From Burkholderiaceae bacterium (lineage in GTDB: Bacteria > Pseudomonadota > Gammaproteobacteria > Burkholderiales > Burkholderiaceae_C): a DNA stretch of 64,000 bases. Under the pieces are notes generated by a model. The model was given only the letters and a program-made list of their open reading frames with translations. It was not told the origin of the DNA and searched no databases. Positions 3,284-15,208 of this stretch are shown piece after piece (the first letter of the stretch is position 1; each line of letters starts with the position of its first letter). The translations under genes were made by a program, and so were the position numbers. The DNA is taken from the NCBI GenBank assembly GCA_031253795.1, contig JAIRVR010000017.1, forward strand, positions 62,001 to 126,000. Reading direction: 5' to 3'.

Positions 3284-3428
3284 CGGTGCTGGTGGTGCAG
3301 GCCCTGCGCCGGCGAGGCGCAAGGGCGGATCGGTGCCGCAGCGCGGGGGCGGGCCATGGCAGGCCGGGCGGCGCCTGCACGGCATGCAGGCGCACAATGG
3401 ACGTTTTTCCGAACCCGGTCCGCCAGCG

Positions 3429-4844
3429 ATGCAGCAAGAACCCGATTTTCTCCACAACCTGAACCAGGAATTGCGGGATGGCAGGCGCTGGCTGGACCGC
3501 AGCATCGTGCTGGCCTATGCGGCGGCTGCCGGGCTGTGTGTGGTGGCCTTCACGCTGATGGCCGATGCGGGCTTCGCCTTTTTCGAGCGCATCTACCACT
3601 GGCAGGGCGGCTGGCTGGTGCTGTTCTGGATGCCCGCCGTCACGGCCGCCGCCGTGTGGCTGACGCGGCGCTGGGCACCGGGCGCGGCCGGCTCGGGCAT
3701 TCCCCAGGTGATCGCCACGCTGGACCCGTCCCTGGACCCGGGGCAGCGTGGGCGCTTCGTTTCGCTGTGGCTGTCGTTCGCCAAGATGGTGCTGGCCAGC
3801 GCGGGCTTTGCCGCGGGCCTGTCCATAGGCCGCGAAGGACCCTCGGTGCAGGTGGCGGCCGGCGTCATGCACCATGCGCGCCGCTGGTTCGGGCCCCAGT
3901 CCGGCATCAGCAGCCATGCCCTGCTGGTGGCCGGCGGCGCCGCCGGCATCGCGGCGGCCTTCAATGCGCCGCTGGCGGGCGTGGTCTTTGCCATCGAAGA
4001 GCTGTCGCGCAAGCTGGAGTCGCGATCCAGCGGGCTGATCATCGCGGCCATCGTGCTGGCCGGCCTGATGGGCGTGTCGGCTTTCGGCAACCTCAGCTAC
4101 TTCGGTCGCATCCAGGTGCCGGGACTGACCTGGGACGCGCTGCTGCCGGGCCTGTGCGTGACCCTGGCCTGCGGCGTGCTGGGCGGCCTGTTCGCCAAGC
4201 TGCTGGCGGCTTCGCTCACCTCGGCGCCCGAGCGCCTGAACCGGTTGCGCGCGCGCTTTCCCATACGCTTTGCCGCGGCCATCGCCCTGGTCATCGCCGT
4301 CATCGGCCTGGTCACGGGTGGTGCCACGTTCGGCGCAGGATCGGAAGCCGTCAAGCACATGCTGGCGGGCCAGGCCGACGTGCCTTCGTTCTATGTCACG
4401 CTCAAGTTCATCGCCACCTGGCTGTCGGCCTGGGTGGGGGTACCGGGGGGCATTTTCGCGCCCTCGCTGTCCATCGGCGCGGGCGTGGGCCAGAACGTGG
4501 CCTCGCTGATGGGCGCCGACATCGCGCCGGCCCTGATCGCCATGGGCATGGCGGCCTTTCTGGCCGCCGTCACCCAGGCTCCGCTGACGGCCTTCATCAT
4601 CGTCATGGAAATGGTGGATGGCCACTCCATGGTGCTCAGTCTCATGGCGGCCGCCATGCTGGCCAGCCTGGTGTCGCGCATGCTGGCCCGGCCCCTGTAC
4701 GAGACCCTGGCCCAGCACATGCTGAGCCTGGTGCCGGCACCCGCACCCGCACCGGCACCCGCGTCCGCGCCCGCACCCGCACCTGCACCCGAACAGGAGC
4801 CTGCGCCCGCACCCGCCCCGCAGGACAGGGCGCCGGGCGCCTGA
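3429..4844 (+). CDS. CLC-family chloride/proton exchanger
   Basis: A 471-residue polytopic inner-membrane protein with all three CLC selectivity signatures: GSGIP (88-92), GREGP (134-138, gating Glu E136) and GGIFAPSL. After the fourth helix group comes FAIEELSRK, where the double Glu matches the internal proton-coupling glutamate of E. coli ClcA. Exchange of chloride for protons is therefore more likely than a passive channel. No CBS domains follow. The C-terminus is an unusual low-complexity tail of about 38 residues made of Pro-Ala dipeptides with a few Ser, Glu and Gln. The start at 3429 (MQQEPDF) is preferred over the in-frame ATG at 3384 because it gives normal family length. Confidence 0.9.
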   Translation: MQQEPDFLHNLNQELRDGRRWLDRSIVLAYAAAAGLCVVAFTLMADAGFAFFERIYHWQGGWLVLFWMPAVTAAAVWLTRRWAPGAAGSGIPQVIATLDPSLDPGQRGRFVSLWLSFAKMVLASAGFAAGLSIGREGPSVQVAAGVMHHARRWFGPQSGISSHALLVAGGAAGIAAAFNAPLAGVVFAIEELSRKLESRSSGLIIAAIVLAGLMGVSAFGNLSYFGRIQVPGLTWDALLPGLCVTLACGVLGGLFAKLLAASLTSAPERLNRLRARFPIRFAAAIALVIAVIGLVTGGATFGAGSEAVKHMLAGQADVPSFYVTLKFIATWLSAWVGVPGGIFAPSLSIGAGVGQNVASLMGADIAPALIAMGMAAFLAAVTQAPLTAFIIVMEMVDGHSMVLSLMAAAMLASLVSRMLARPLYETLAQHMLSLVPAPAPAPAPASAPAPAPAPEQEPAPAPAPQDRAPGA

Positions 4845-4866
4845 GCGCGGCGGCGCGCCCGCTCAG
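4841..4866. terminator. Stop-codon-containing hairpin between convergent genes
   Basis: CTGAGCG (4841-4847) and CGCTCAG (4860-4866) form a perfect 7-bp inverted repeat around a GC-rich 12-base loop. The stem contains the TGA of the CLC gene and the complement of the TGA of the TonB receptor. No T-run follows on either strand, so it would be a weak or factor-dependent bidirectional terminator. Confidence 0.4.
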
Positions 4867-7094
4867 AAGTCCATGCTGGCGCTGAGGGAGAAGGTGCGCG
4901 GGGCACCCAGGGTCATATAGCCCGAACCCGGGTAGCCGCCCACCGAGGCCCAGTAGTTGCGATCGGTCACGTTGTCCACGCGCAGGCGCAGGGTCAGCAG
5001 CTTGCCCTGGACTTCGGTCATGTAGCGCACGCCCAGGTCCAGGCGGTTCCAGCCGGCCACGCGCAGGCTGTTGACGTCGTTGGCATAGCTGGCGCCGGTG
5101 TGGACCAGGCGGCCGTCCAGGGTCAGGCCCTTGACGCCGGGCACATCCCATTCCGCGCCCATGGTGGCCTGGAAGCGCGGTACGCCGATCACGCGCTTGC
5201 CGTCCGTGGTGGCATTGCCCGTGCTGTCCTGCTTGGCATCCAGCCAGGTGGCGCCACCCAGCAGGCGCAGGCCGCGCACGGGTTCGCCGAACAGGTTGAG
5301 CTCCAGCCCCTGGTGGCGGTCCTTGCCTTCCGAGGTGAACCGGTTGCCGTCGATCAGCGAGCGCGGCTTGTCCGTGGAGAAGAAGGCCAGGCCGCCTCCC
5401 AGCTTGCCGCCGTCGTACTTGACGCCGACTTCCTTTTGCTTGGTCACATAGGGCGACATCTGCTCGCCCGCGTTGACGATGACGGTGTTGCCCGAGCGTG
5501 CCGGCGCCGTATCGCCCTGGGCCAGGCCCTCGATGTAGTTGCCGTACAGCGAGACCTGGGGCGTGAGCTTGAACACCGCGCCCAGCACGGGGCTGGTGCG
5601 GCTCTGGTCATAGGCCGTGCGCACGCCGCCCGGGCTGGTGACCACGCCGTTGTTGACCACGCGGTAGGTCAGGGAATCGGTCTCTATGGTCTGGTGGCGC
5701 ACGCCGGCCGTGACCAGCAGGCGCCCGTCCATCATGGACAGCGTGTCGCCCAGCGCAAAGCTGTTCAGGCGCGTGCCCCGGTTGTAGGCCGGGTTGGACA
5801 GATCGTTGCCCAGGTAGGTCAGCGGCGTGGACGCGTAGTAGCTGGGGTTGTAGAGGTTGGTGTTGAGCGTGTTGCCCAGGCTCATGCCGTAGGCGTTGTA
5901 GACCTTGAGGTCGAAGGCCGAGTAGCTGGCCACGATCTCATGGCCCACGCTGCCGGTCTGCAGGCGCCCGCGCAGTCCGATCTCGCCCGTGCTCACGCGG
6001 TCCTTGCGTGCATTGTCGAAGCGGCTAGTCGTGGCTGCGCCGTTGCCGGTGGCAGCCAGCGTGATGTTGGCCAGCGAGTTGTTCTCGCTGCTGCGGCGCA
6101 GGCCGTAGGCGGCCCAGGCCGTCAGGTTGCTGTTGATGTCCCATTCGCCGCGCAGCGTGCCGAACAGGTCGCGTTCGTCGGAATAGCTCCAGGGCTGGGC
6201 CCAGTTGGAGGACGCGTCGGGGGCCGAGGGAATGGCCGTCAGCCCCGTGCCGGGCGTGACATTGGTGCGCGTGCGCTTGAGGCGGTTTTCCTGCCAGCCG
6301 ATATCGCCCGACAGGCGCACATCGCGGCTGCGCCAGTCCATGCCCACGGACAGCAGGTCCAGCCGCGAGTGTTCCTGGTCGATGGAGGTGTCGCCCGCGC
6401 GATGGGCCGCGTTCACGCGGATGCCCGTGCTCTGGTCGGGGCCGAAGCGCCGGCTCACGTCGGCGGCGATACTGGCCTGGCCGCCGCTGGCCACGCCGGC
6501 CGTCACGCGCGACAGGGGCTCGCTGCCCGCACGCTTGGGCAGCAGGTTGATGTTGCCGCCCAGGCCGCCGCCGTTGGGGCTTGCGCCCATGAGGAAGGTG
6601 GAAGCGCCGCGCAGCAGTTCCACGCGCTCGAACAGTTCGGTGGCGATGTACTGGCGCGGCAGCAGGCTGTACAGGCCGTTGTAGGCCACGTCGTCCGAGC
6701 TCAGCGTGAAGCCGCGCACGAAATATGCTTCCTGGAAGTTGCCGAAGCCGCGCGATACGCGCACCGTCGGGTCGTTCTGCAGCACGTCGCCCACGCTGCG
6801 GGCCTGGCGGTCCTGGATCAGCTCGTTGGTGTAGCTGGTGATGGAAAACGGTGTTTCCATGTTGTCGCGCGTGCCCAGGATGCCGGCGCGTCCGCCGCGC
6901 GCCACCTGGCCGCCCGCATAGGGCTTGGACAGGCCTTCGGCCGAGGCGTCGGCGCTGGCTTCCACGGTGATGGTGCCCAGCTCGGGCGTGGCCACGGGGG
7001 CCGCAGGCGCGGTCTGGGCCCAGACGGTGGCGGAGGACAGGAGGCAGGCCAGGGCCCCGGCGATGGGGGTCAGCGCGTAATGGCGGGAATGCAT
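4863..7094 (-). CDS. TonB-dependent siderophore receptor
   Basis: A 743-residue outer-membrane receptor importing a ferric siderophore using TonB energy. From the ATG at 7094 the signal peptide is MHSRHYALTPIAGALACLL and ends near VWAQ. The plug domain follows (TPFSITSYTNELI, QDRQARSVGDVL, then YFVRGF, RVELLRGAS and GGGLGGNINL). A 22-strand barrel with alternating hydrophobic strands ends in the terminal Phe (SASMDF). There is no N-terminal STN signalling domain, so it should be a plain importer, not a surface-signalling receptor. The frame is open upstream to 7202, but 7094 gives a clean signal peptide and leaves a Fur-like site just upstream. The siderophore cannot be inferred. Confidence 0.92.
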   Translation of the reverse strand: MHSRHYALTPIAGALACLLSSATVWAQTAPAAPVATPELGTITVEASADASAEGLSKPYAGGQVARGGRAGILGTRDNMETPFSITSYTNELIQDRQARSVGDVLQNDPTVRVSRGFGNFQEAYFVRGFTLSSDDVAYNGLYSLLPRQYIATELFERVELLRGASTFLMGASPNGGGLGGNINLLPKRAGSEPLSRVTAGVASGGQASIAADVSRRFGPDQSTGIRVNAAHRAGDTSIDQEHSRLDLLSVGMDWRSRDVRLSGDIGWQENRLKRTRTNVTPGTGLTAIPSAPDASSNWAQPWSYSDERDLFGTLRGEWDINSNLTAWAAYGLRRSSENNSLANITLAATGNGAATTSRFDNARKDRVSTGEIGLRGRLQTGSVGHEIVASYSAFDLKVYNAYGMSLGNTLNTNLYNPSYYASTPLTYLGNDLSNPAYNRGTRLNSFALGDTLSMMDGRLLVTAGVRHQTIETDSLTYRVVNNGVVTSPGGVRTAYDQSRTSPVLGAVFKLTPQVSLYGNYIEGLAQGDTAPARSGNTVIVNAGEQMSPYVTKQKEVGVKYDGGKLGGGLAFFSTDKPRSLIDGNRFTSEGKDRHQGLELNLFGEPVRGLRLLGGATWLDAKQDSTGNATTDGKRVIGVPRFQATMGAEWDVPGVKGLTLDGRLVHTGASYANDVNSLRVAGWNRLDLGVRYMTEVQGKLLTLRLRVDNVTDRNYWASVGGYPGSGYMTLGAPRTFSLSASMDF

Positions 7095-7099
7095 AGCGA

Positions 7100-7130
7100 G
7101 ATGGGAATGAGAATGGTTCCCACTCATTTT
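7100..7130 (-). promoter_or_regulatory. Fur-box-like dyad upstream of the siderophore receptor
   Basis: AATGAG (7106-7111) and CTCATT (7123-7128) form an inverted repeat within a stretch rich in GAATGAGAAT-type hexamers, resembling the Fur recognition unit. It lies 12-34 bases before the preferred receptor start, where Fur would block transcription when iron is plentiful. The match to the classical 19-bp box is partial, so the call rests on position and target type. Confidence 0.5.
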
Positions 7131-7251
7131 AAAAGCGCGGGCCCCGTCGGCCGCCCGGGCGTATCCATTTGTATGTTTGTGCCCACACTGCCATGGTGTC
7201 ATTCACAGCGGGCGCCATTCGTGGCAGGAGGGCCGTGCCGGGCCCAAGGCC

Positions 7252-8298
7252 CTAAAGGCGCAAGGGACTGAACAGGCGGTCGATCTGCTGGCCGTGGGCC
7301 GCATAGGCCGCCGTGGCCGCCTGGCGCGCCGCGGCCAGCAGCCGGTCGCGCGCCTCGCCGCTGGCCAGGTCCAGGCGCATGAAGGCCGGCAGGGGTTCGC
7401 CCTCGTGGTTCACGCGCAGGTAGCGCTGCTGCAGCAGTTCGCCGGCCTGGGCCGAGGCCGTGCGCTCCTGCACGTCCATGATAAAGCCCGGGAGATCGGC
7501 GGCCCATTGCAGGCCCGCGCGGCTGGCCGCCTCGGCGGGGCGCAGGGGCTGGTGGCCGGCCGTGCCCAGGCTGAGCATTTCCACGCGTTCCAGGGATGCG
7601 GGGCTGCGGCGCATGATTTCCATCAGGGCCAGCATGTCGGGGTTGTTCACGGCCAGGCCGCCATCCAGCATGGGAAGCCCGTCGATCTGGCCGGGCTCGA
7701 AGTAGGTGGGCGCTGCCGAAGTGGCCAGGCATGCCTGTTTGAGCGTGGCATCGCTGGCATGGGCCCGGCCGAAAAAGCCCGAGCGAAAGACCTGCACCCG
7801 GCCATGGACCCAGTCCACGGCGGGCACGACCAGGCCCTTGGCGATGGCCGACATCGGCGTGGCCGCATGGGGGCCCAGGCAGGCGTCAATGGCTTCGGAC
7901 AAATGGCCGCTGTCGTACAGCGTGCCGAACAGCAGGCGCCGCAGCGTGCCCGCCTTGCGCGGCGCGAACACGCGGGGCCCGTGGGCGTCGATGGCCTCCA
8001 GCACCTGGCGGGGTGCGATGCCCACGGCCAGGGCGCAGGCCATCAGGCCGCCGATGGATGTGCCCGCGAACACGTCGAATGCCCCGTCCAGCGCACCCTC
8101 GTGCCCGGCCTTGCGGCACAGCGTGACCAGGGCCTGGGCCGTGAACAGGCCGCGGTAGCCGCCGCCTGTCAGCGACAGCACGCGCAGCGGCGCAAAGGCC
8201 TGGCGAGCACCCGTACCGGGCAGCGGCTGTGGCAGGGCGTCCAGGGCCTGCTGGAAATCGGGCGCGAAGGCGGGGCCGGACGCGGCGTCAGAGGGCAT
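7252..8298 (-). CDS. Patatin-like phospholipase, last gene of a Phd/PIN/patatin cassette
   Basis: A 348-residue patatin-fold lipid acyl hydrolase. Visible motifs are the oxyanion loop GGGYRG (45-50), the nucleophile elbow GTSIGG with S81, and the DGG motif with D212, completing the Ser-Asp dyad. The active site therefore looks intact. There is no signal peptide or transmembrane segment, so it is cytoplasmic. The motif style resembles CapV-type patatins that act as effectors in anti-phage CBASS, but no CD-NTase cyclase is near. The start at 8298 (MPSDAASG) overlaps the upstream PIN-like gene by 11 bases, indicating translational coupling. Role as toxin or defence effector is inferred from this context; a housekeeping lipase is the alternative. 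Confidence 0.85.
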   Translation of the reverse strand: MPSDAASGPAFAPDFQQALDALPQPLPGTGARQAFAPLRVLSLTGGGYRGLFTAQALVTLCRKAGHEGALDGAFDVFAGTSIGGLMACALAVGIAPRQVLEAIDAHGPRVFAPRKAGTLRRLLFGTLYDSGHLSEAIDACLGPHAATPMSAIAKGLVVPAVDWVHGRVQVFRSGFFGRAHASDATLKQACLATSAAPTYFEPGQIDGLPMLDGGLAVNNPDMLALMEIMRRSPASLERVEMLSLGTAGHQPLRPAEAASRAGLQWAADLPGFIMDVQERTASAQAGELLQQRYLRVNHEGEPLPAFMRLDLASGEARDRLLAAARQAATAAYAAHGQQIDRLFSPLRL

Positions 8299-8710
8299 GG
8301 ATGGTGACGCCCAGGGCCTGCAGGGCCGCATGCTCGGGCCGGGCGGTTTCCACCACGGCCAGGCCTTCGTGCATGGCCGTGGCATAGACCTGGCGCTCCA
8401 CCTGGCCCACGCCGGGAATGCTGGCGTCCATGCACAGATGGGCCCACATCATGGCGTGGGGCAGCTCGAAGCCCAGCGGGCCCAGGCCCGAGTCGGCCTT
8501 GATGCGGTCCAGCAGGGTGTAGAGATCCGTTTCCAGGTATTTGCGCACGGCGGCATTGCGCTGCGTCTCGATCTTGGCCGTGGCCAGGGCCACGGAAATG
8601 GCGCTGGTGCGTATGCTGCGCGCATCGATGGCGTTGGCCCATTGCCTGGCCGCCGTCTGGCCCGAACCGATGAGCTGCAACAGGGTGCCTGCCGTCAGCA
8701 GCCAGTTCAT
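8288..8710 (-). CDS. PIN-domain-like protein with degenerate active site (VapC/FitB-like)
   Basis: A 140-residue protein, the size of VapC/FitB toxins. By eye it follows the PIN layout: strand 1 NWLLTAGTLLQLI, then SAISVALATAKIE where PIN proteins have the acidic second motif, and ERQVYATAMHEGLAVVE where they have the third acidic residue and its helix. Catalytic acids are mostly missing: the first Asp is T6, the second Glu position is Leu or Ala near 42, and only E105 could stand in for the third. I therefore expect no normal RNase activity. Its ATG overlaps the upstream stop (ATGA, 8710-8707), and it overlaps the patatin gene. Family assignment is inference from pattern; a structure prediction would decide. 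Confidence 0.6.
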   Translation of the reverse strand: MNWLLTAGTLLQLIGSGQTAARQWANAIDARSIRTSAISVALATAKIETQRNAAVRKYLETDLYTLLDRIKADSGLGPLGFELPHAMMWAHLCMDASIPGVGQVERQVYATAMHEGLAVVETARPEHAALQALGVTIHAL

Positions 8711-9090
8711 CGACGCCCTCGCGCGGCCTTGGGCAGGGCCTTGGCATCGACCTCGGGCAGGGCCAGGTCCGGCAGGCCGTCGTCGGGCAGGGCGCGGGCC
8801 TCGAGCACCGGGCTTTTGCCCAGCTTGTGAAACGGCAGGGAATCGACGATCTCGCCCAGCGTGCGCGAAGGGCGGGCCTGGGCGATGCGGTCGCGGAACA
8901 CGGTCAGGTCGACCAGGATGGCCGATGGCCCGGCCTGGGTCTTGGCGTTCTTGATGAGAAAGCCCCGGCCCGTCTCGGCCGAACGCCGCATCAGGCCCGG
9001 GATGTCGGCACGCGCCGCGCCCACGGCGACGTTCTCGACCTCCAGCTCCACCGCACCGCCGCTGCCCAGGGCAAATCTCAGGACACTCAT
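8707..9090 (-). CDS. Phd/YefM-like antitoxin-type protein
   Basis: A 127-residue protein, first gene of the cassette. Residues 25-70 resemble the Phd/YefM core: ARADIPGLMRRSAETGRGF corresponds to the helix and turn before the strands, and KTQAGPSAILVDLTVFRDRI matches the region in which Phd proteins carry the strand-plus-helix ending in a Val-Asp/Ser-x-x-x-aromatic pattern. The Pro- and Leu-rich C-terminal tail (from about 88) would be the partner-binding part. GGAGG lies 7 bases before the ATG. The promoter region carries TGTACA palindromes, the core operator of YefM proteins, which supports the assignment independently. Likely role: autorepressor and neutraliser of the downstream product(s). 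Confidence 0.6.
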   Translation of the reverse strand: MSVLRFALGSGGAVELEVENVAVGAARADIPGLMRRSAETGRGFLIKNAKTQAGPSAILVDLTVFRDRIAQARPSRTLGEIVDSLPFHKLGKSPVLEARALPDDGLPDLALPEVDAKALPKAARGRR

Positions 9091-9112
9091 GGCTGCCTCC
9101 ACTGCAATCGGA

Positions 9113-9165
9113 TGTGTACGCGGCCCCCACGGCATGGAGGCCTTGATTTGTACATGATGTGCAAA
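9113..9165 (-). promoter_or_regulatory. TGTACA-type operator array upstream of the Phd/PIN/patatin cassette
   Basis: TTTGTACAT-G-ATGTGCAAA (9147-9165) is a 19-bp near-perfect palindrome with one mismatch. It holds TGTACA (9149-9154) and TGTGCA (9158-9163). A further TGTACG (9115-9120) lies nearer the gene. The palindrome is 57-75 bases upstream of the first ATG. TGTACA cores are the known binding sites of the YefM antitoxin, which fits the Phd/YefM-like first gene. Confidence 0.6.
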
Positions 9166-9250
9166 TTTAGCACCGCAGCCCCCCGGCAGCAAATCCGGGC
9201 CGGCATCGCCGGACCGTGGCACGGGTCTTTGCCGGTGCCAGGGTCAGACC

Positions 9251-9946
9251 CTAAAGGCGCTGTGCCTGGGCGCTCAGATAGGCGTTGCGCGAGGGCTGGA
9301 GGTGCTCGGCACACAGGCGCACCAGGCTGTCCCGGTCCTGGGCGCGCAAGGCCTCGATCATCTGCCAGTGTTCCTGGCGCGCACGCTCGCGGTAGTCGGC
9401 CGAGACCAGGGAGGCAAAGCGTATGGGATGGGTCTGGCGCGCGTACTCGGCAATCGCCTTGCGCAGGGTTTCGTTGCCGGTGAGGGAGAACAGCTCCTGG
9501 TGGAAGGCCAGGTTGATGCGAAAGACCAGGCGCGCATGGCCCTGGGCCACGGCCGCATCGTGCTGGTGCTGGATGGCGACCAGGCGCTCCAGCCGCACAG
9601 GGTCCACGGGCAGGGGGATCTTGCGAGCGGCCTCGGTCTCCAGCATGCCGCGCAGCTCGTAGAGCTCCTCGACCTCCTGGGGGGAGAAGGAGCGCACCAG
9701 GGCGCCCACGTTCTTGCGGCGCTCGATCAGGCCCATCCGGTCCAGGGCCGCCAGCGCCTCGCGCGCCACGTGGCGCTTGACGTCGAAGCGGGCCATGAGC
9801 TCGTCCTCCACCAGGCGTTCGCGTGGATGCAGGCGCCCGAAGACCACGTCTTCTTCCAGCGCAGCCACCATGGCGCCCAGGGCGTCGGTGGCCGACGGGG
9901 CGGGGTCGGCATCCAGGGAAATCGGCAAAGAGGTGGCGGAGACCAT
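9251..9946 (-). CDS. GntR-family transcriptional regulator (FCD subfamily)
   Basis: A 231-residue regulator. The N-terminal winged HTH includes RLVEDELMARFDVKRHVARE and ALDRMGLIERRKNVGALVRS. The C-terminal all-helical FCD ligand-binding domain has the ELYELRGMLETEAA segment and the His-rich pattern (HQELFSLTGN) that binds a metal and carboxylate effectors. The start at 9946 (MVSATSL) is chosen because a perfect dyad lies directly upstream; an earlier ATG at 9976 would fall inside it. Its neighbours, a dehydratase on the same strand and a divergent Bug protein, suggest control of sugar-acid or organic-acid use. The 102-base gap to the dehydratase contains that dyad. Confidence 0.88.
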   Translation of the reverse strand: MVSATSLPISLDADPAPSATDALGAMVAALEEDVVFGRLHPRERLVEDELMARFDVKRHVAREALAALDRMGLIERRKNVGALVRSFSPQEVEELYELRGMLETEAARKIPLPVDPVRLERLVAIQHQHDAAVAQGHARLVFRINLAFHQELFSLTGNETLRKAIAEYARQTHPIRFASLVSADYRERARQEHWQMIEALRAQDRDSLVRLCAEHLQPSRNAYLSAQAQRL

Positions 9947-9961
9947 CGCAAAGACAGGATT

Positions 9962-9983
9962 GGACAAAAGCGCCATTTTGTCC
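9962..9983 (-). promoter_or_regulatory. Perfect dyad GGACAAAA-N6-TTTTGTCC upstream of the GntR gene
   Basis: Eight-base perfect arms (9962-9969 and 9976-9983) flank GCGCCA, 16-37 bases before the GntR start at 9946. Position and symmetry suit an autoregulatory GntR operator. The dyad lies between the dehydratase stop and the GntR gene, so it would regulate an internal promoter. Confidence 0.5.
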
Positions 9984-10048
9984 GAGAAGACGCCGTGGCC
10001 GGAAGCGGCCACCGGTGCCAATCGTCCTTGCCGGCCTCCCGGTCCGGC

Positions 10049-11824
10049 CTAGGACCGGTTTTCGGGCACGCTGCCACGTGCGGTGGCGCCGCGCAGAAAA
10101 TCGAAGTCCACGCCCTGGTCGGCCTGGGTGACCGTGGTCAGAAAGAGCTTGCGGTAGCCGCGCTCGGCCGTGGGTTCGACCACGGGATTCTCATGGGCAC
10201 GGCGCGCCAGCTCCGCGTCGTCGACCAGCAGCGCCAGTTCGCGCCGCGCTACCGACAGCCGGATACGGTCGCCGCTGCGCACCTGGGCCAGGGGGCCGCC
10301 CACGGCCGATTCGGGCGTGACATGCAGGACGATGGTGCCGAAGGCCGTGCCGCTCATGCGGCCGTCGGAGATGCGCACGATGTCCTTGACGCCGGCGCGC
10401 GCCAGCTTGCGCGGGATGGGGATGTAGCCCGCCTCGGGCATGCCGGGCGCGCCCTTGGGGCCGATGTTCTTGAGCACCAGGATGTCGTCGGCCGTGACAT
10501 CCAGGTCGTCGCTGTCGATGCGCAGTGCCAGGTCGGCCGCGTTCTCGAAGACCACGGCCCGGCCCTCGTGCTCCATGAGCTTCGGATGGGCGGCCGACTG
10601 CTTGATGATGGCCCCCCCCGGCGCGAGATTGCCGCGCAGCACGGCGATGCCGCCCTGCGGGTAGATGGGGTTGGCGCGCGTGCGCACCACGTCCTGGGCA
10701 AAGCCCGGGCCGGCGCGTTCTATTTCCTCGCCCAGCGTGCGGCCCGTGACGGTCAGCGCCTCCAGCCGCAGCAGGGGCTTGAGTTCGCGCAGCAGGGTGG
10801 CCATGCCGCCCGCGTGGTGGAAGTCCTCCATGTAGTGCTCGCCAGAAGGCTTGAGGTCCAGCAGCACGGGCGTGTCGCGGCCCATGCGGTCCAGGGCCTG
10901 CAGGTCGATGTCATAGCCCAGCCGTCCCGCGATGGCCGCCAGGTGCACCAGGCCGTTGGTCGAGCCGCCGATGGCCAGCAGCACGCGCATGGCGTTCTCG
11001 AAGGCCGCGGGCGTGAGGATTCTGTCGATGGTCAGGCCCTGGCGGGCCATCTCCACGGCCTGGGCGCCGGTCTGCTCGGCGATGCGGATGCGGTCGGCCG
11101 TCACCGCCGGCGGCGAGGCACCGCCGGGCACGGTCATGCCCATGGCCTCGGCCAGGCAGGCCATGGTGCTGGCCGTGCCCATGACCGAGCAGGTGCCCAC
11201 GCTGGCCACCAGCTGGTTGTTCACGTCGGCGATTTCCTGGGCGTCGATTTCCTCGGCGCGGAACTTGCCCCAGTAGCGGCGGCAATCCGTGCAGGCGCCC
11301 ACGCGCTCGCTGCGGTGCGAGCCCGTGAGCATGGAGCCGGTGATCAGCTGGATGGCCGGTATGCCGGCCGAGGCCGCACCCATGAGCTGGGCCGGCACGG
11401 TCTTGTCGCAGCCGCCGATGAGCACGATGGCGTCCATGGGCTGGGCCCGGATCATTTCCTCGGTGTCCATGGACATGAGGTTGCGCAGGTACATGCTGGT
11501 CGGCGCCGAAAAGCTCTCGTGCACCGAGATGGTGGGGAAGTCCATGGGCAGGCCGCCGGCCATCAGGATGCCGCGCTTGACGGCCTCGATCAGCTGGGGC
11601 GCATTGCCGTGGCAGGGGTTGTAGCTGCTGCCGGTGTTGGTGATGCCGATGACGGGGCGCGCCAGGGCCTCGTCCGTATAGCCGGCCCCCTTGATGAAGG
11701 CCTTGCGCAGGAACAGCGAAAAGCCGCGGTCGCCGTAGTTGGTCAGCCCTTTGGAGATGCCGGTGGCGGCGTCGGCGGGGGCGATGTCGTGGCCGGGAGC
11801 GGCGGGGGTCTGGGGATCGGTCAT
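10049..11824 (-). CDS. IlvD/Edd-family dehydratase (sugar-acid dehydratase type)
   Basis: A 591-residue Fe-S hydro-lyase that removes water from a 2,3-dihydroxy or aldonic acid to give a 2-keto acid. Candidate cluster cysteines are in SSYNPCHGN, IGGCDKT and GTCSVMGTAST, all conserved in the family. The C-terminal domain has GRMSGTAFG, as in the group that includes L-arabonate and D-xylonate dehydratases. The GntR at 9251 and the Bug protein at 12011 are consistent with a sugar-acid catabolic role over branched-chain amino acid synthesis, though no keto-acid-processing enzyme is adjacent. True IlvD would be a housekeeping gene without this context. Confidence 0.88.
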   Translation of the reverse strand: MTDPQTPAAPGHDIAPADAATGISKGLTNYGDRGFSLFLRKAFIKGAGYTDEALARPVIGITNTGSSYNPCHGNAPQLIEAVKRGILMAGGLPMDFPTISVHESFSAPTSMYLRNLMSMDTEEMIRAQPMDAIVLIGGCDKTVPAQLMGAASAGIPAIQLITGSMLTGSHRSERVGACTDCRRYWGKFRAEEIDAQEIADVNNQLVASVGTCSVMGTASTMACLAEAMGMTVPGGASPPAVTADRIRIAEQTGAQAVEMARQGLTIDRILTPAAFENAMRVLLAIGGSTNGLVHLAAIAGRLGYDIDLQALDRMGRDTPVLLDLKPSGEHYMEDFHHAGGMATLLRELKPLLRLEALTVTGRTLGEEIERAGPGFAQDVVRTRANPIYPQGGIAVLRGNLAPGGAIIKQSAAHPKLMEHEGRAVVFENAADLALRIDSDDLDVTADDILVLKNIGPKGAPGMPEAGYIPIPRKLARAGVKDIVRISDGRMSGTAFGTIVLHVTPESAVGGPLAQVRSGDRIRLSVARRELALLVDDAELARRAHENPVVEPTAERGYRKLFLTTVTQADQGVDFDFLRGATARGSVPENRS

Positions 11825-11928
11825 GTCGTGGGCCTGGGTCGGGGTCTATGGAGAGGGCGCGGTCTGGCGGTGCCGGTGCGGCAAGCATAGCGGGCGCGTG
11901 TTGAATTATTGTCGTCGTTATCACCTAT

Positions 11929-11940
11929 ATTATTAATAAT
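11929..11940. promoter_or_regulatory. AT-rich divergent promoter region with palindrome ATTATTAATAAT
   Basis: A perfect 12-bp palindrome sits in a markedly AT-rich stretch (about 11901-11955) inside otherwise GC-rich DNA, between the divergent dehydratase (11824) and Bug (12011) genes. It probably marks their promoters and a shared operator; which protein binds is unknown. Confidence 0.35.
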
Positions 11941-12010
11941 CTAATTGATTAAACATGCGGCACGCCCGGCCATCCCACCGGGCCGTTCCACCCTTCCAAG
12001 GAGACCCCGC

Positions 12011-13027
12011 ATGACTGCACGCCCCGCCACCCGACCCCTTCATCCCCCCAACCGACGCGCCATGCTGGCCGCGGCCCTGTGCGCCCTGGGCCTGCCCATG
12101 GCAGGAAGCGCGGCCGCCGAGGGCGCCTATCCCCAGCGTCCCATCAGGCTGGTCGTTCCCTATACGCCAGGTGGTGCCACCGATGTGATCGGCCGCGTGG
12201 TCGGCCAGAGGCTGGCCCTGTCCCTGGGCCAGCCCGTGGTCGTGGAAAACCGTGCCGGAGCCGCGGGCAACCTCGGCGCTGCGGCCGTGGCCAAGGAAAA
12301 GGCCGACGGCTACACCCTGCTGCTGGGCGCGCTGACCAGCCATTCCATCAACAGCGTGCTCATGGCCTCGACGGCCGGTTTTTCCATGGACAGAAGCTTC
12401 GCGCCCATCGCCGTCGTGGGCCGCGTGCCCCTGGTGGTCACGGTGGGGCCTTCGGTCAAGGCCGCGAACCTGGACGAGTTCATCGCCCTGGCGCGCAGCC
12501 GGCCCGGCGGGCTGAACTACGGCTCTTCGGGCAATGGCTCGCCCCAGCACCTGGCTGCCGAGCTGTTCAAGCGCCAGGCCGGCGTGTCCCTGACCCATGT
12601 GCCCTACAAGGGCAGCACGCCCGCGCTCAACGACCTGATGGGCGGCCAGGTCGACGTGGTCTTCGACACCCTGCCCGCCACCCAGGGCTTCATCAAGGGC
12701 GGGCGGCTGCGCGGCCTGGCCGTGACCACGGCCCAGCGCCTGCCGTCCATGGACCAGGTGCCCACGGCGGCCGAGGCCGGCCTGACGGGTTTCGAGGTCA
12801 CCTCCATGTTCGGCGTGCTGGCGCCGGCGGGCACGCCCGCGCCCGTGGTGGCGCGGCTGAGCTCTGCGCTGCGGGACATCATGGCCCAGTCCGAGGTGCG
12901 CGAGGCCCTGGTCGCCCAGGGCGCCATGCCCGGCTTCACCACCCCCGAGCAGGCCAGGGTGCAGATCGCCGAGGAAGTGGGGCGCTGGGCGACCGTGATC
13001 CGCGAGGCCGGCATCCGCCCGGATTGA
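12011..13027 (+). CDS. Bug-family (TctC-like) periplasmic solute-binding protein
   Basis: A 338-residue exported binding protein. A signal peptide (core MLAAALCALGLPMAGSAAA after an Arg pair) is followed by the Bug signature YPQRPIRLVVPYTPGGATD, VVVENRAGAAGN, LNYGSSGNGSPQHLAAE and VPYKGSTPALNDLMGGQVD. The Bug fold binds a carboxylate, often a dicarboxylate or aromatic acid, through two bridging waters. The start at 12011 follows AAGGAGA at 7-base spacing. No TctA/TctB membrane subunits are adjacent, so it must share a transporter or act as a sensor. The divergent dehydratase suggests a hydroxy- or sugar-acid ligand. Confidence 0.9.
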   Translation: MTARPATRPLHPPNRRAMLAAALCALGLPMAGSAAAEGAYPQRPIRLVVPYTPGGATDVIGRVVGQRLALSLGQPVVVENRAGAAGNLGAAAVAKEKADGYTLLLGALTSHSINSVLMASTAGFSMDRSFAPIAVVGRVPLVVTVGPSVKAANLDEFIALARSRPGGLNYGSSGNGSPQHLAAELFKRQAGVSLTHVPYKGSTPALNDLMGGQVDVVFDTLPATQGFIKGGRLRGLAVTTAQRLPSMDQVPTAAEAGLTGFEVTSMFGVLAPAGTPAPVVARLSSALRDIMAQSEVREALVAQGAMPGFTTPEQARVQIAEEVGRWATVIREAGIRPD

Positions 13028-14434: not shown

Positions 14435-15208
14435 ATGTCCGGCGAGCTTCCGCGCAGGTACCTGCGCTACCACCAGACCGAACGCCCCATGGCCGCCATG
14501 CAGGCCAACTGGGTCCATGGCAGCTCCACGGGCTGGCATGCGCATCCGCGCGGGCAACTGCTGTATGCCATCGAGGGGGTGATGTCCGTGCGCCTGGCCA
14601 CGGGCTCCTGGCTGGTGCCGCCCAACCGCGGCCTGTGGATCGTGGCGGGCGCCGAACACGATGTGCGCATGTCGGGCGACGTGAAAATGCGCACGGCCTA
14701 CATCGATGCCTCGGCCTTTGCCGACCTGCCGCAGCGGACCTGTGTGGTCAACGTCTCGCCCCTGCTGCGCGAGCTGGTGGTGGCCGCGTCCCAGGTGCCG
14801 CTGGACTATGCGCAGGGCAGCCGCGACGAGCGCCTCATGCACCTGCTGGTCGACGAACTGCGCACGGCCGAGGTCCTGCCCCTGTACCTGCCCGGCACGG
14901 CCGAGCCCCGGCTGCGCCAGGTCTGCCAGGCCCTGCTGGACGACCCGGCCAGCACGGCCACGGCCGGTGAATGGGCGGGCCGGCTGGGCATGAGCACCAA
15001 GACCCTGCAGCGCCTGTTCGTACGGGAAACCGGCATGCCCTTCGCTCAGTGGCGCGAGCAGGCGCGCCTGCTGTTCGCGCTGCGCCGCATCGCGGGCGGC
15101 GGCCGCATTATCGACATCGCCCTGGATTGCGGCTATGCCAGCCAGAGCGCCTTCACGGCCATGTTCCGCCGCCATTTCGGGGCGCCGCCCTCGGCTTTCT
15201 GCCGTTGA
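14435..15208 (+). CDS. AraC-family transcriptional regulator
   Basis: A 257-residue regulator with an N-terminal cupin (AraC_binding) domain, marked by GWHAHPRGQLLYAIEGVMSV and WLVPPNRGLWIVAGAEH, and a C-terminal double HTH with WAGRLGMSTKTLQRLFVRET and IIDIALDCGYASQSAFTAMF. The histidines in the cupin region resemble those of metal-binding cupins. The ATG at 14435 gives the standard length for this subfamily. It is divergent from the Fsr-type exporter, which is the probable target. Confidence 0.9.
   Translation: MSGELPRRYLRYHQTERPMAAMQANWVHGSSTGWHAHPRGQLLYAIEGVMSVRLATGSWLVPPNRGLWIVAGAEHDVRMSGDVKMRTAYIDASAFADLPQRTCVVNVSPLLRELVVAASQVPLDYAQGSRDERLMHLLVDELRTAEVLPLYLPGTAEPRLRQVCQALLDDPASTATAGEWAGRLGMSTKTLQRLFVRETGMPFAQWREQARLLFALRRIAGGGRIIDIALDCGYASQSAFTAMFRRHFGAPPSAFCR

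What the first reader, a model, noticed from the sequence alone, without database searches (positions are those of the whole stretch)
7252..9165. Three-gene Phd-like / degenerate PIN / patatin phospholipase cassette: possible new toxin-antitoxin or defence system
Seen: three overlapping genes (ATGA overlap, then 11-bp overlap) behind a palindromic operator. The first looks Phd/YefM-like, the second looks like a VapC/FitB PIN protein stripped of catalytic acids, the third is a patatin with intact S81/D212. Established: patatins are lethal effectors in CBASS (CapV), and Phd-PIN pairs are classic toxin-antitoxin modules. Inference: the pseudo-PIN may now act as a sensor, scaffold or inhibitor and the phospholipase may be the true toxin, giving a three-part membrane-attacking module. 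I know of no described system with this composition.
Basis: partly seen in the sequence, partly recalled or inferred. Interest (0 to 1): 0.88.

Follow-up and report, generated by a model that had tools for sequence, protein, structure and literature searches.

The report
Dead-nuclease toxin-antitoxin with phospholipase
A bacterial three-gene cassette joins a toxin-antitoxin regulator and a worn-out relative of a toxin nuclease to a membrane-digesting enzyme best known from anti-phage immunity, suggesting that a dead toxin was kept as the control handle of a new weapon.

Summary
Minus strand 9090-7252 encodes a Phd/YefM-type protein, a PIN-fold protein without most catalytic residues, and a CapV-type patatin with Ser81/Asp212 intact. 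The order recurs in 15 distinct loci: 11 in the window's bacterial order, 4 on alphaproteobacterial plasmids. Their patatins form one clade among CapV (CBASS effector) relatives. Among 95 distinct patatin loci read, the 9 best scorers (303.6 bits up) have both partners upstream; the 86 weaker (290.6 bits down) lack the PIN. No cyclase match lay beside 11 module loci probed. Genes 1 and 2 descend from a Phd-VapC pair: 26 of 29 ordinary VapC loci have a homologous Phd directly upstream. The first PIN aspartate is lost in 15/15, kept in 27/27 ordinary VapC; yet the dead PIN is under purifying selection (dN/dS 0.11-0.17). Module patatins also lost a Lys/His motif kept by 38-39 of 39 other CapV-type patatins. 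In a same-genus genome this slot holds other DNA.

Best reading: an autorepressed three-part toxin-antitoxin or abortive-infection module in which Phd plus pseudo-PIN restrain the phospholipase, replacing the cyclic-nucleotide switch. Composition and conservation are shown; toxicity, inhibition and phage defence are inferred.

The parts
9146..9166 (-). imperfect palindrome ATTTGCACAT-C-ATGTACAAAT (minus strand), proposed operator, 56-76 nt upstream of gene 1; contains TGTACA
   Evidence: TGTACA also upstream of L001 (1), L113 (2) and L115 (2); about 0.02 expected per 160 nt. The palindrome itself was not tested against chance. No sigma-70 match in 6900-9400.
8707..9090 (-). gene 1: Phd/YefM-like antitoxin/autorepressor, 127 aa, with a C-terminal TLGEIVDSLPF segment that lines up with the C-terminal part of antitoxins beside VapC
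   Evidence: 4 of 7 members match Pfam PhdYeFM, best E 0.0011; the window member does not; profile: YefM 2a6q E 0.012, Phd 3hry E 0.19; model; best Foldseek hits YefM, none at E<=0.001; family HMM finds the gene directly upstream of VapC in 26 of 29 loci
8288..8710 (-). gene 2: pseudo-PIN, FitB/VapC-type PIN protein, 140 aa; window residues T, L, E, A stand at the four positions that are D, E, D, N in VapC
   Evidence: profile-profile probability 99.0 with VapC/FitB; only PDB hits up to E 10 are FitB, 2h1c E 1.1e-5
7252..8298 (-). gene 3: CapV-type patatin-like phospholipase, 348 aa; GGGYRG, GTSIG (Ser81) and DGG (Asp212) present; FKTxH...D motif of CapV relatives lost. The same frame stays open upstream to 8385, so the start is a choice.
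7132..9249 (.). variable slot: window DNA with no blastn match in the syntenic region of G133; 4858-7131 and 9250-12334 align at 87% and 85%
   Evidence: L146 = G133:C48:54000-66000

Best explanation
The cassette is a three-part, autoregulated toxin-antitoxin or abortive-infection module, made when a CapV-type phospholipase was joined to a Phd-VapC pair whose VapC lost its nuclease residues. Shown: the ancestry of all three parts, one patatin clade, a conserved order, a PIN that lacks its first catalytic Asp everywhere yet is under selection, and loss of a motif that other CapV relatives keep. Inferred: (1) the Phd dimer binds repeated elements upstream and represses the operon; (2) its C-terminal tail still grips the PIN-fold protein, as in Phd-VapC pairs; (3) the PIN-fold protein is the adaptor that holds the phospholipase inactive, taking over the switch that cyclic nucleotides provide in CBASS; (4) when Phd is lost (proteolysis, shut-off of host synthesis by a phage, plasmid loss) the phospholipase is freed and degrades membrane phospholipid, stopping or killing the cell.
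For: Fifteen distinct loci keep Phd, pseudo-PIN, patatin in that order. Among 95 distinct patatin loci in L040-L139, the 9 at 303.6 bits or more have both partners and none of the 86 at 290.6 or less has the PIN. Module patatins are one clade: SH-aLRT 98 with 7 members, 95 with 15, quick trees. No CD-NTase match in 11 module loci, against 15 of the 86 weaker loci. First PIN Asp lost 15/15, Glu 14/15, second Asp 13/15, Asn 15/15; ordinary VapC keep Asp 27/27, Glu 26/27 (one Asp), Asp 27/27, Asn 26/27. Pseudo-PIN dN/dS 0.11-0.17 in four same-genus pairs, a fifth has no replacement; patatin 0.17-0.25. Family Phd HMM finds the gene directly upstream of VapC in 26 of 29 loci. Lys of FKTxH 39/39 in other CapV-type patatins, 0/15 in the module. 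Repeated upstream elements in 14 of 15 loci.
Against: No toxicity, binding, inhibition or phage data. That FKTxH is the cyclic-nucleotide site is a guess; 23 CapV-type patatins with no cyclase match nearby keep it. L001 and L113 keep the second Asp, L001 the Glu, and one subgroup has an Asp one residue away, so residual metal binding is not excluded. The PIN model is uninformative; the Phd fold match has no E below 0.001. Most members were found through the patatin, so pseudo-PINs without patatin could have been missed. The 300-bit border was drawn after seeing the scores. The window's own neighbours are metabolic genes; conflict genes adjoin 3 of the 5 modules whose neighbours I looked at, with no background measured.
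Confidence: 0.48

Rival explanations
1. The pseudo-PIN is the sensor and trigger rather than a brake: without catalysis it still binds RNA (for example phage or tRNA fragments), and the occupied protein switches the phospholipase on, while Phd only controls expression.
For: Pseudo-PIN keeps the family's sequence signature and is under purifying selection; a nuclease that binds but does not cut would be a natural sensor. The linkage data fit it equally.
Against: No data on RNA binding. Gene 1 keeps a C-terminal segment like that of antitoxins beside VapC, which points to Phd-PIN binding as the main job.
Confidence: 0.2
2. The patatin is still a CBASS-like effector switched on by a cyclic nucleotide made elsewhere in the cell; Phd and pseudo-PIN are only a repressor pair that keeps its level low.
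For: Close kinship with CapV; the records of three plasmid members name it 'CBASS cGAMP-activated phospholipase'; repeated upstream elements suggest repression.
Against: No CD-NTase match in 11 module loci and no SMODS match in the window's assembly (control rang in 3 of 14 genomes, but the assembly is only 59% complete). Lys and His of FKTxH lost in 15/15 while 39 and 38 of 39 relatives keep them. Does not explain why a dead PIN is conserved.
Confidence: 0.15
3. A selfish plasmid- or island-stabilising addiction module (toxin-antitoxin) with no defence role.
For: Four types on plasmids; several chromosomal sites; TA layout.
Against: Does not exclude the best explanation; the effector belongs to an immune family.
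Confidence: 0.12
4. The patatin is a housekeeping or lipid-remodelling enzyme and its neighbours are decaying remains of a Phd-VapC pair.
For: The first PIN Asp is lost in 15/15; patatins have many metabolic roles (recalled).
Against: dN/dS of gene 2 well below 1 and 15 open copies in the same order in distant bacteria. Patchy occurrence (5/53 in genus, 8/359 in family) is unlike housekeeping.
Confidence: 0.05

Closest known systems
CapV, the cGAMP-activated patatin-like phospholipase effector of type II CBASS
   Same: Gene 3 is a CapV relative (PADLOC phospholipase effector E 2.6e-62; PDB CapV 8zr9 by family profile E 1.7e-58); same catalytic motifs. Passages seen: PMC9095652 (motifs, putative Ser64/Asp197), PMC12802263 (S62A abolishes activity).
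   Different: No CD-NTase match beside it; separate clade; window protein below the NCBIfam CBASS_lipase cut-off (190.5 vs 200 bits); FKTxH...D motif lost; found with Phd plus pseudo-PIN.
Phd-VapC / FitAB type II toxin-antitoxin (PIN ribonuclease)
   Same: Genes 1 and 2 are homologous to both partners in the same order.
   Different: PIN catalytic residues lost; a third gene, a phospholipase, follows in the 15 loci (mostly found through it); none of 29 ordinary VapC loci had a patatin within the stretch fetched.
YefM-YoeB and Phd-Doc antitoxins
   Same: Gene 1 resembles YefM and Phd; TGTACA upstream in four of 15 loci. That TGTACA is the YefM operator core is recalled, from no call.
   Different: No RelE-type or Doc toxin gene was seen in the operons.
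Three-part TA systems such as HipBST and toxin-antitoxin-chaperone (recalled, from no call)
   Same: A small third protein, related to a toxin part or a chaperone, stands between antitoxin and toxin.
   Different: Different folds; here the middle protein is a dead PIN and the likely effector a lipase.

Membership tests
Type II CBASS | CD-NTase in the operon | tested here: not met
   no match to six CD-NTase probes in 11 module loci within up to 1.5 kb (L113 has only about 0.2 kb after the patatin); none annotated within 4 kb in L004-L006; L007 not probed; no SMODS hit in the 59%-complete own assembly
Type II CBASS | CapV-type phospholipase effector with Ser/Asp dyad | tested here: met
   but the window protein is below the NCBIfam CBASS_lipase cut-off
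Type II CBASS | effector activated by cyclic nucleotide | not testable with these tools
   only indirect: Lys and His of FKTxH lost in 15/15
VapC/FitB PIN ribonuclease | PIN family ancestry | tested here: met
   (2 of 7 members match Pfam PIN, best 3.5e-6; the window member does not); fold model failed
VapC/FitB PIN ribonuclease | conserved acidic active site | tested here: not met
   first Asp lost 15/15, Glu 14/15, second Asp 13/15
Phd/YefM antitoxin | Phd/YefM domain | tested here: met
   by family profile; the window protein alone gives no hit
Phd/YefM antitoxin | binds operator and represses | tested here: inconclusive
   repeated elements upstream; binding not tested
Type II toxin-antitoxin system | small adjacent genes, antitoxin first | tested here: met
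   gaps from -14 to 103 nt between genes 1 and 2 and -11 to 67 nt between genes 2 and 3 over 15 loci; co-transcription not tested
Type II toxin-antitoxin system | one protein toxic, another neutralises it | not testable with these tools
   needs expression
Anti-phage defence system | location in defence islands | tested here: inconclusive
   neighbours looked at for L001, L004, L005, L006, L115; conflict genes beside three: L004 (Piwi, HEPN/Toprim), L005 (AbiEii), L115 (nucleotidyltransferase-HepT); no background measured

The most novel reading that the evidence does not exclude
Toxin succession: in an ancestral Phd-VapC operon the toxin's nuclease died, and its protein became the adaptor by which the old antitoxin controls a newly recruited immune phospholipase. 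A proteolysis-sensitive protein switch thereby replaced the cyclic-nucleotide switch of CapV, giving a membrane-attacking three-part toxin-antitoxin immune module.
Probability: 0.42. Interest if true: 0.9.

Novelty: new variant of a known kind. Interest (0 to 1): 0.77.

Why it matters
If true, it is a toxin-antitoxin system whose poison is a phospholipase and whose former toxin is kept, dead, as a regulatory part, and a second way to control CapV-type immune effectors. It also points to a likely misannotation: the records of three plasmid members call the patatin 'CBASS cGAMP-activated phospholipase' although no cyclase is annotated beside it. Fifteen natural variants with several kinds of upstream element make it directly testable in laboratory E. 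coli.

Tried and rejected
AlphaFold2 of the pseudo-PIN from a two-row alignment gave pLDDT 45 and was discarded.

Viral contigs for P0002 and P0003: patterns matched, no relative confirmed. Phage records: 7 with a patatin, 6 of them Wolbachia phages, 23-29% identity, not followed. P0002 against plasmids: no match; relatives came through patatin hits and then through other members' PINs.

Single-query and capped searches miss members: P0002 in 399 genomes of the order found 2 and missed G133, and the PIN profile also missed it (only ten candidates scored there). Frequencies are lower bounds.

The PIN profile as a genome probe matched 74 of 398 genomes; of the loci given, 29 (L011-L039) were read and are ordinary VapC, kept as controls; the other matches were not read. 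L031 and L038 (truncated) were dropped before the 27-row counts; L038 starts at the PIN, so it has no upstream DNA (one of the 3 of 29 without Phd).

Hits against strict separation: an older profile gave a PIN match at E 0.0011 on the opposite strand in L074, a cyclase-type locus, not seen with the later profile; weak Phd matches (E 0.019-0.028) occur in L054, L055 and L092.

The motifs counted were chosen after looking at the same sequences, and L072, L109 and L111 are near copies, so the contrast with expectation is descriptive. The exact-repeat test was below 0.02 for 5 of 15 loci (L110, L116, L119, L004, L005) and not for the window.

The FKTxH comparison used 16 patatins with a cyclase beside them and 23 without; L074, L079 and L104 (ThiF only) and lower-scoring loci were left out. 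The columns were selected for the contrast: six passed (F, K, T, H, D, E), plus two module-specific ones.

Window versus L001 dN/dS is near saturation (genes 1-3: 1.03, 0.50, 0.40) and was not used. In one search some start positions (gene 1 of L007, L115, L116; gene 2 of L006) are not usual start codons; those N-termini are approximate.

One search read an incomplete file and gave 0 of 29; rerun as it gives 26 of 29. The careful tree did not finish; trees reported are quick ones, and the tool warned of long branches.

Papers: no structural paper on the CapV nucleotide site turned up in the listings.
Full report
1. The observation. Three open genes lie on the minus strand: 9090-8707, 8710-8288 and 8298-7252, with a 4-nt ATGA overlap and an 11-nt overlap. 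The third is a patatin (Pfam E 1.9e-23) with GGGYRG, GTSIG and DGG motifs; Ser81 and Asp212 are invariant in the seven-member alignment. It best matches PADLOC's CBASS phospholipase effectors and reaches 190.5 bits for NCBIfam CBASS_lipase, whose cut-off is 200. The first two window proteins give no significant family hit alone.

2. The family. A scan of genome contigs with the PIN-like protein found one locus, L001, in a Burkholderiaceae MAG, with the same three genes in the same order. Patatin searches in plasmids led to four more types, each read: Rhizobium sp. L51/94 (L004), Sphingobium xenophagum (L005), Qipengyuania sp. (L006) and Rhizobium leguminosarum (L007). Five further plasmid records have a PIN match identical or equal in score to L005 or L006; they were not read. 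Genome searches added L072 (read), L109-L111 (read) and L113-L116 and L119 (read). Total: 15 distinct loci, of which L072, L109 and L111 are near copies (94-97% identical patatin and PIN proteins or better).

3. How common. 5 of 53 genomes of the genus (all five loci read), 8 of 359 of the family (the 30 loci given were probed) and 3 of 399 of the order (30 loci given); the sets overlap and the counts are lower bounds. A patchy, moving element is the natural reading.

4. Linkage. Loci L040-L139 hold 100 patatins, 95 distinct. The 9 distinct ones with 303.6 bits or more of the module profile have both pseudo-PIN and Phd upstream; of the 86 with 290.6 bits or less none has the pseudo-PIN at E 0.01. 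The border was drawn after seeing the scores. L072 was in the profile; the other 8 were not, though L109-L111 are its close kin. Among the 86, 15 have a CD-NTase match in the stretch; of 11 module loci (the 9, the window and L001) none has. Annotated sister loci show cyclase plus ThiF. None of 29 ordinary VapC loci had a patatin in the stretch fetched. Weak contrary hits are given under Tried and rejected.

5. One origin. The module patatins are one side of one branch: SH-aLRT 98 with 7 members among 61 rows, 95 with 15 among 54 rows, among CapV-type patatins of which some are in CBASS operons. These are quick trees with long branches among the plasmid members.

6. The PIN protein is dead but kept. 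A seven-member profile matches ten ordinary VapC/FitB proteins at 99.0% probability; its only PDB hits are FitB structures (best E 1.1e-5). Against 27 ordinary VapC, the first catalytic Asp is replaced in 15/15 (Gly 8, Ser 5, Thr 1, Pro 1), the Glu in 14/15, the second Asp in 13/15 and the Asn in 15/15; ordinary VapC keep Asp 27/27, Glu 26/27 (one Asp), Asp 27/27, Asn 26/27. Limits: L001 and L113 keep the second Asp, L001 the Glu, and one subgroup has an Asp one residue off. In five pairs of the window's genus gene 2 has dN/dS 0.11-0.17 (four pairs) or no replacement (one pair), gene 1 0.07-0.17, gene 3 0.17-0.25; for L116/L119, of another genus, the values are 0.28-0.36. So the protein is selected although it lacks residues a PIN nuclease needs.

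7. The first gene is the antitoxin of a Phd-VapC pair. Four of seven members match Pfam PhdYeFM weakly (best 0.0011); the profile's best PDB hits are YefM (E 0.012), a putative Phd protein (0.033) and Phd (0.19); the model of the window protein (pLDDT 57, about 72-81 in residues 11-50) finds YefM first, with no E at or below 0.001. Stronger: the 15-member HMM finds the gene directly upstream of ordinary VapC in 26 of 29 loci, best E 2.3e-10, in several cases through the C-terminal 'tlgdileslpf' segment. That this segment is the PIN-binding tail is from my recall of such antitoxins.

8. Upstream elements. TGTACA occurs upstream of the window, L001, L113 and L115 (1, 1, 2, 2; about 0.02 expected per 160 nt), TGGTCA/TGACCA two to three times upstream of L072, L109-L111, L114, L116 and L119 (0.14 expected; once at L115), GTGGCCAC twice with 23-nt spacing upstream of L005 and L006 (0.02 expected), CGTACG twice upstream of L004 (0.02 expected); L007 has none of these exactly. 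Motifs were chosen by eye first. The exact-repeat test was not significant for the window.

9. What the patatin lost. Among 16 patatins with a cyclase beside them and 23 without a match, the Lys of FKTxH is 39/39, the His 38/39 and the following Asp 37/39; in the module they are 0/15, 0/15 and 1/15. V. cholerae-type CapV of known structure (8zr9) also shows KTPH in the alignment. I read this as a released constraint, perhaps the nucleotide switch, but could not map it to a structure, and the 23 without cyclase match keep it, which speaks against a simple link.

10. Insertion. In G133 of the same genus the flanks 3426-4797, 4858-7131 and 9250-12334 are conserved at 89, 87 and 85%, while 7132-9249 has no blastn match there and G133 holds about 2.1 kb of other DNA. 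G133 has its own, divergent module on another contig. Of five modules whose neighbours I looked at, three adjoin conflict-system genes: Piwi and HEPN/Toprim (L004), AbiEii (L005), nucleotidyltransferase-HepT (L115); L001 has an AAA protein and an integrase, L006 replication and other genes.

11. Mechanism. The simplest account is that Phd still binds DNA and the PIN fold, and that the PIN fold now binds the phospholipase. Loss of Phd would free the lipase to attack the membrane. Rivals: pseudo-PIN as RNA sensor; CBASS-like activation in trans; pure addiction module; decay (disfavoured by selection). No step of action is shown here.

12. Novelty. Searches for patatin with toxin-antitoxin, PIN, Phd, VapC or tripartite terms and for inactive PIN domains (listings with the start of abstracts only) returned nothing that there describes this composition. 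One listing (PMC12923823, abstract start only) concerns the PIN domains of the eukaryotic NMD factors SMG5 and SMG6, a possible parallel for a PIN domain used as a partner. The library holds only open-licence PMC papers. Each part is known; the combination, the dead PIN and the lost CapV motif make it a new variant of a known kind.

Noticed in passing
L009 (NZ_CP156945.1 84267-93058), Enterobacter hormaechei IncHI2A plasmid: A CapV-type patatin (538-aa gene) flanked by four genes annotated as TIR-domain proteins on a conjugative plasmid; no cyclase annotated in the stretch. 108 Klebsiella plasmid records hold patatin relatives in the same search; their contexts were not read.
   Followed up: partly
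L146 6836-8932 (G133:C48): The slot that holds the module in the window carries other DNA of similar length in G133; its end reads like an AraC-type regulator (my reading; a 62-bp blastn match to window 14712-14773).
   Followed up: partly
L004 920-8885 (Rhizobium sp. L51/94 plasmid): The module lies between a HEPN/Toprim protein and a Piwi-domain gene.
   Followed up: partly
L101 2486-4167 (Pseudomonas putida plasmid): A CapV patatin followed by a short frame that matches the start of CD-NTase and then mercury-resistance and transposon genes: it looks like a decayed CBASS.
   Followed up: partly
L105 2498-3297 (Variovorax sp. RA8 plasmid 2): A CapV-type patatin annotated as two adjacent pieces, apparently broken.
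   Followed up: no
L075, L077, L078 and most of L117-L139: A large clade of CapV-type patatins with no CD-NTase match in the stretch fetched keeps the FKTPH motif; their role is unclear.
   Followed up: partly
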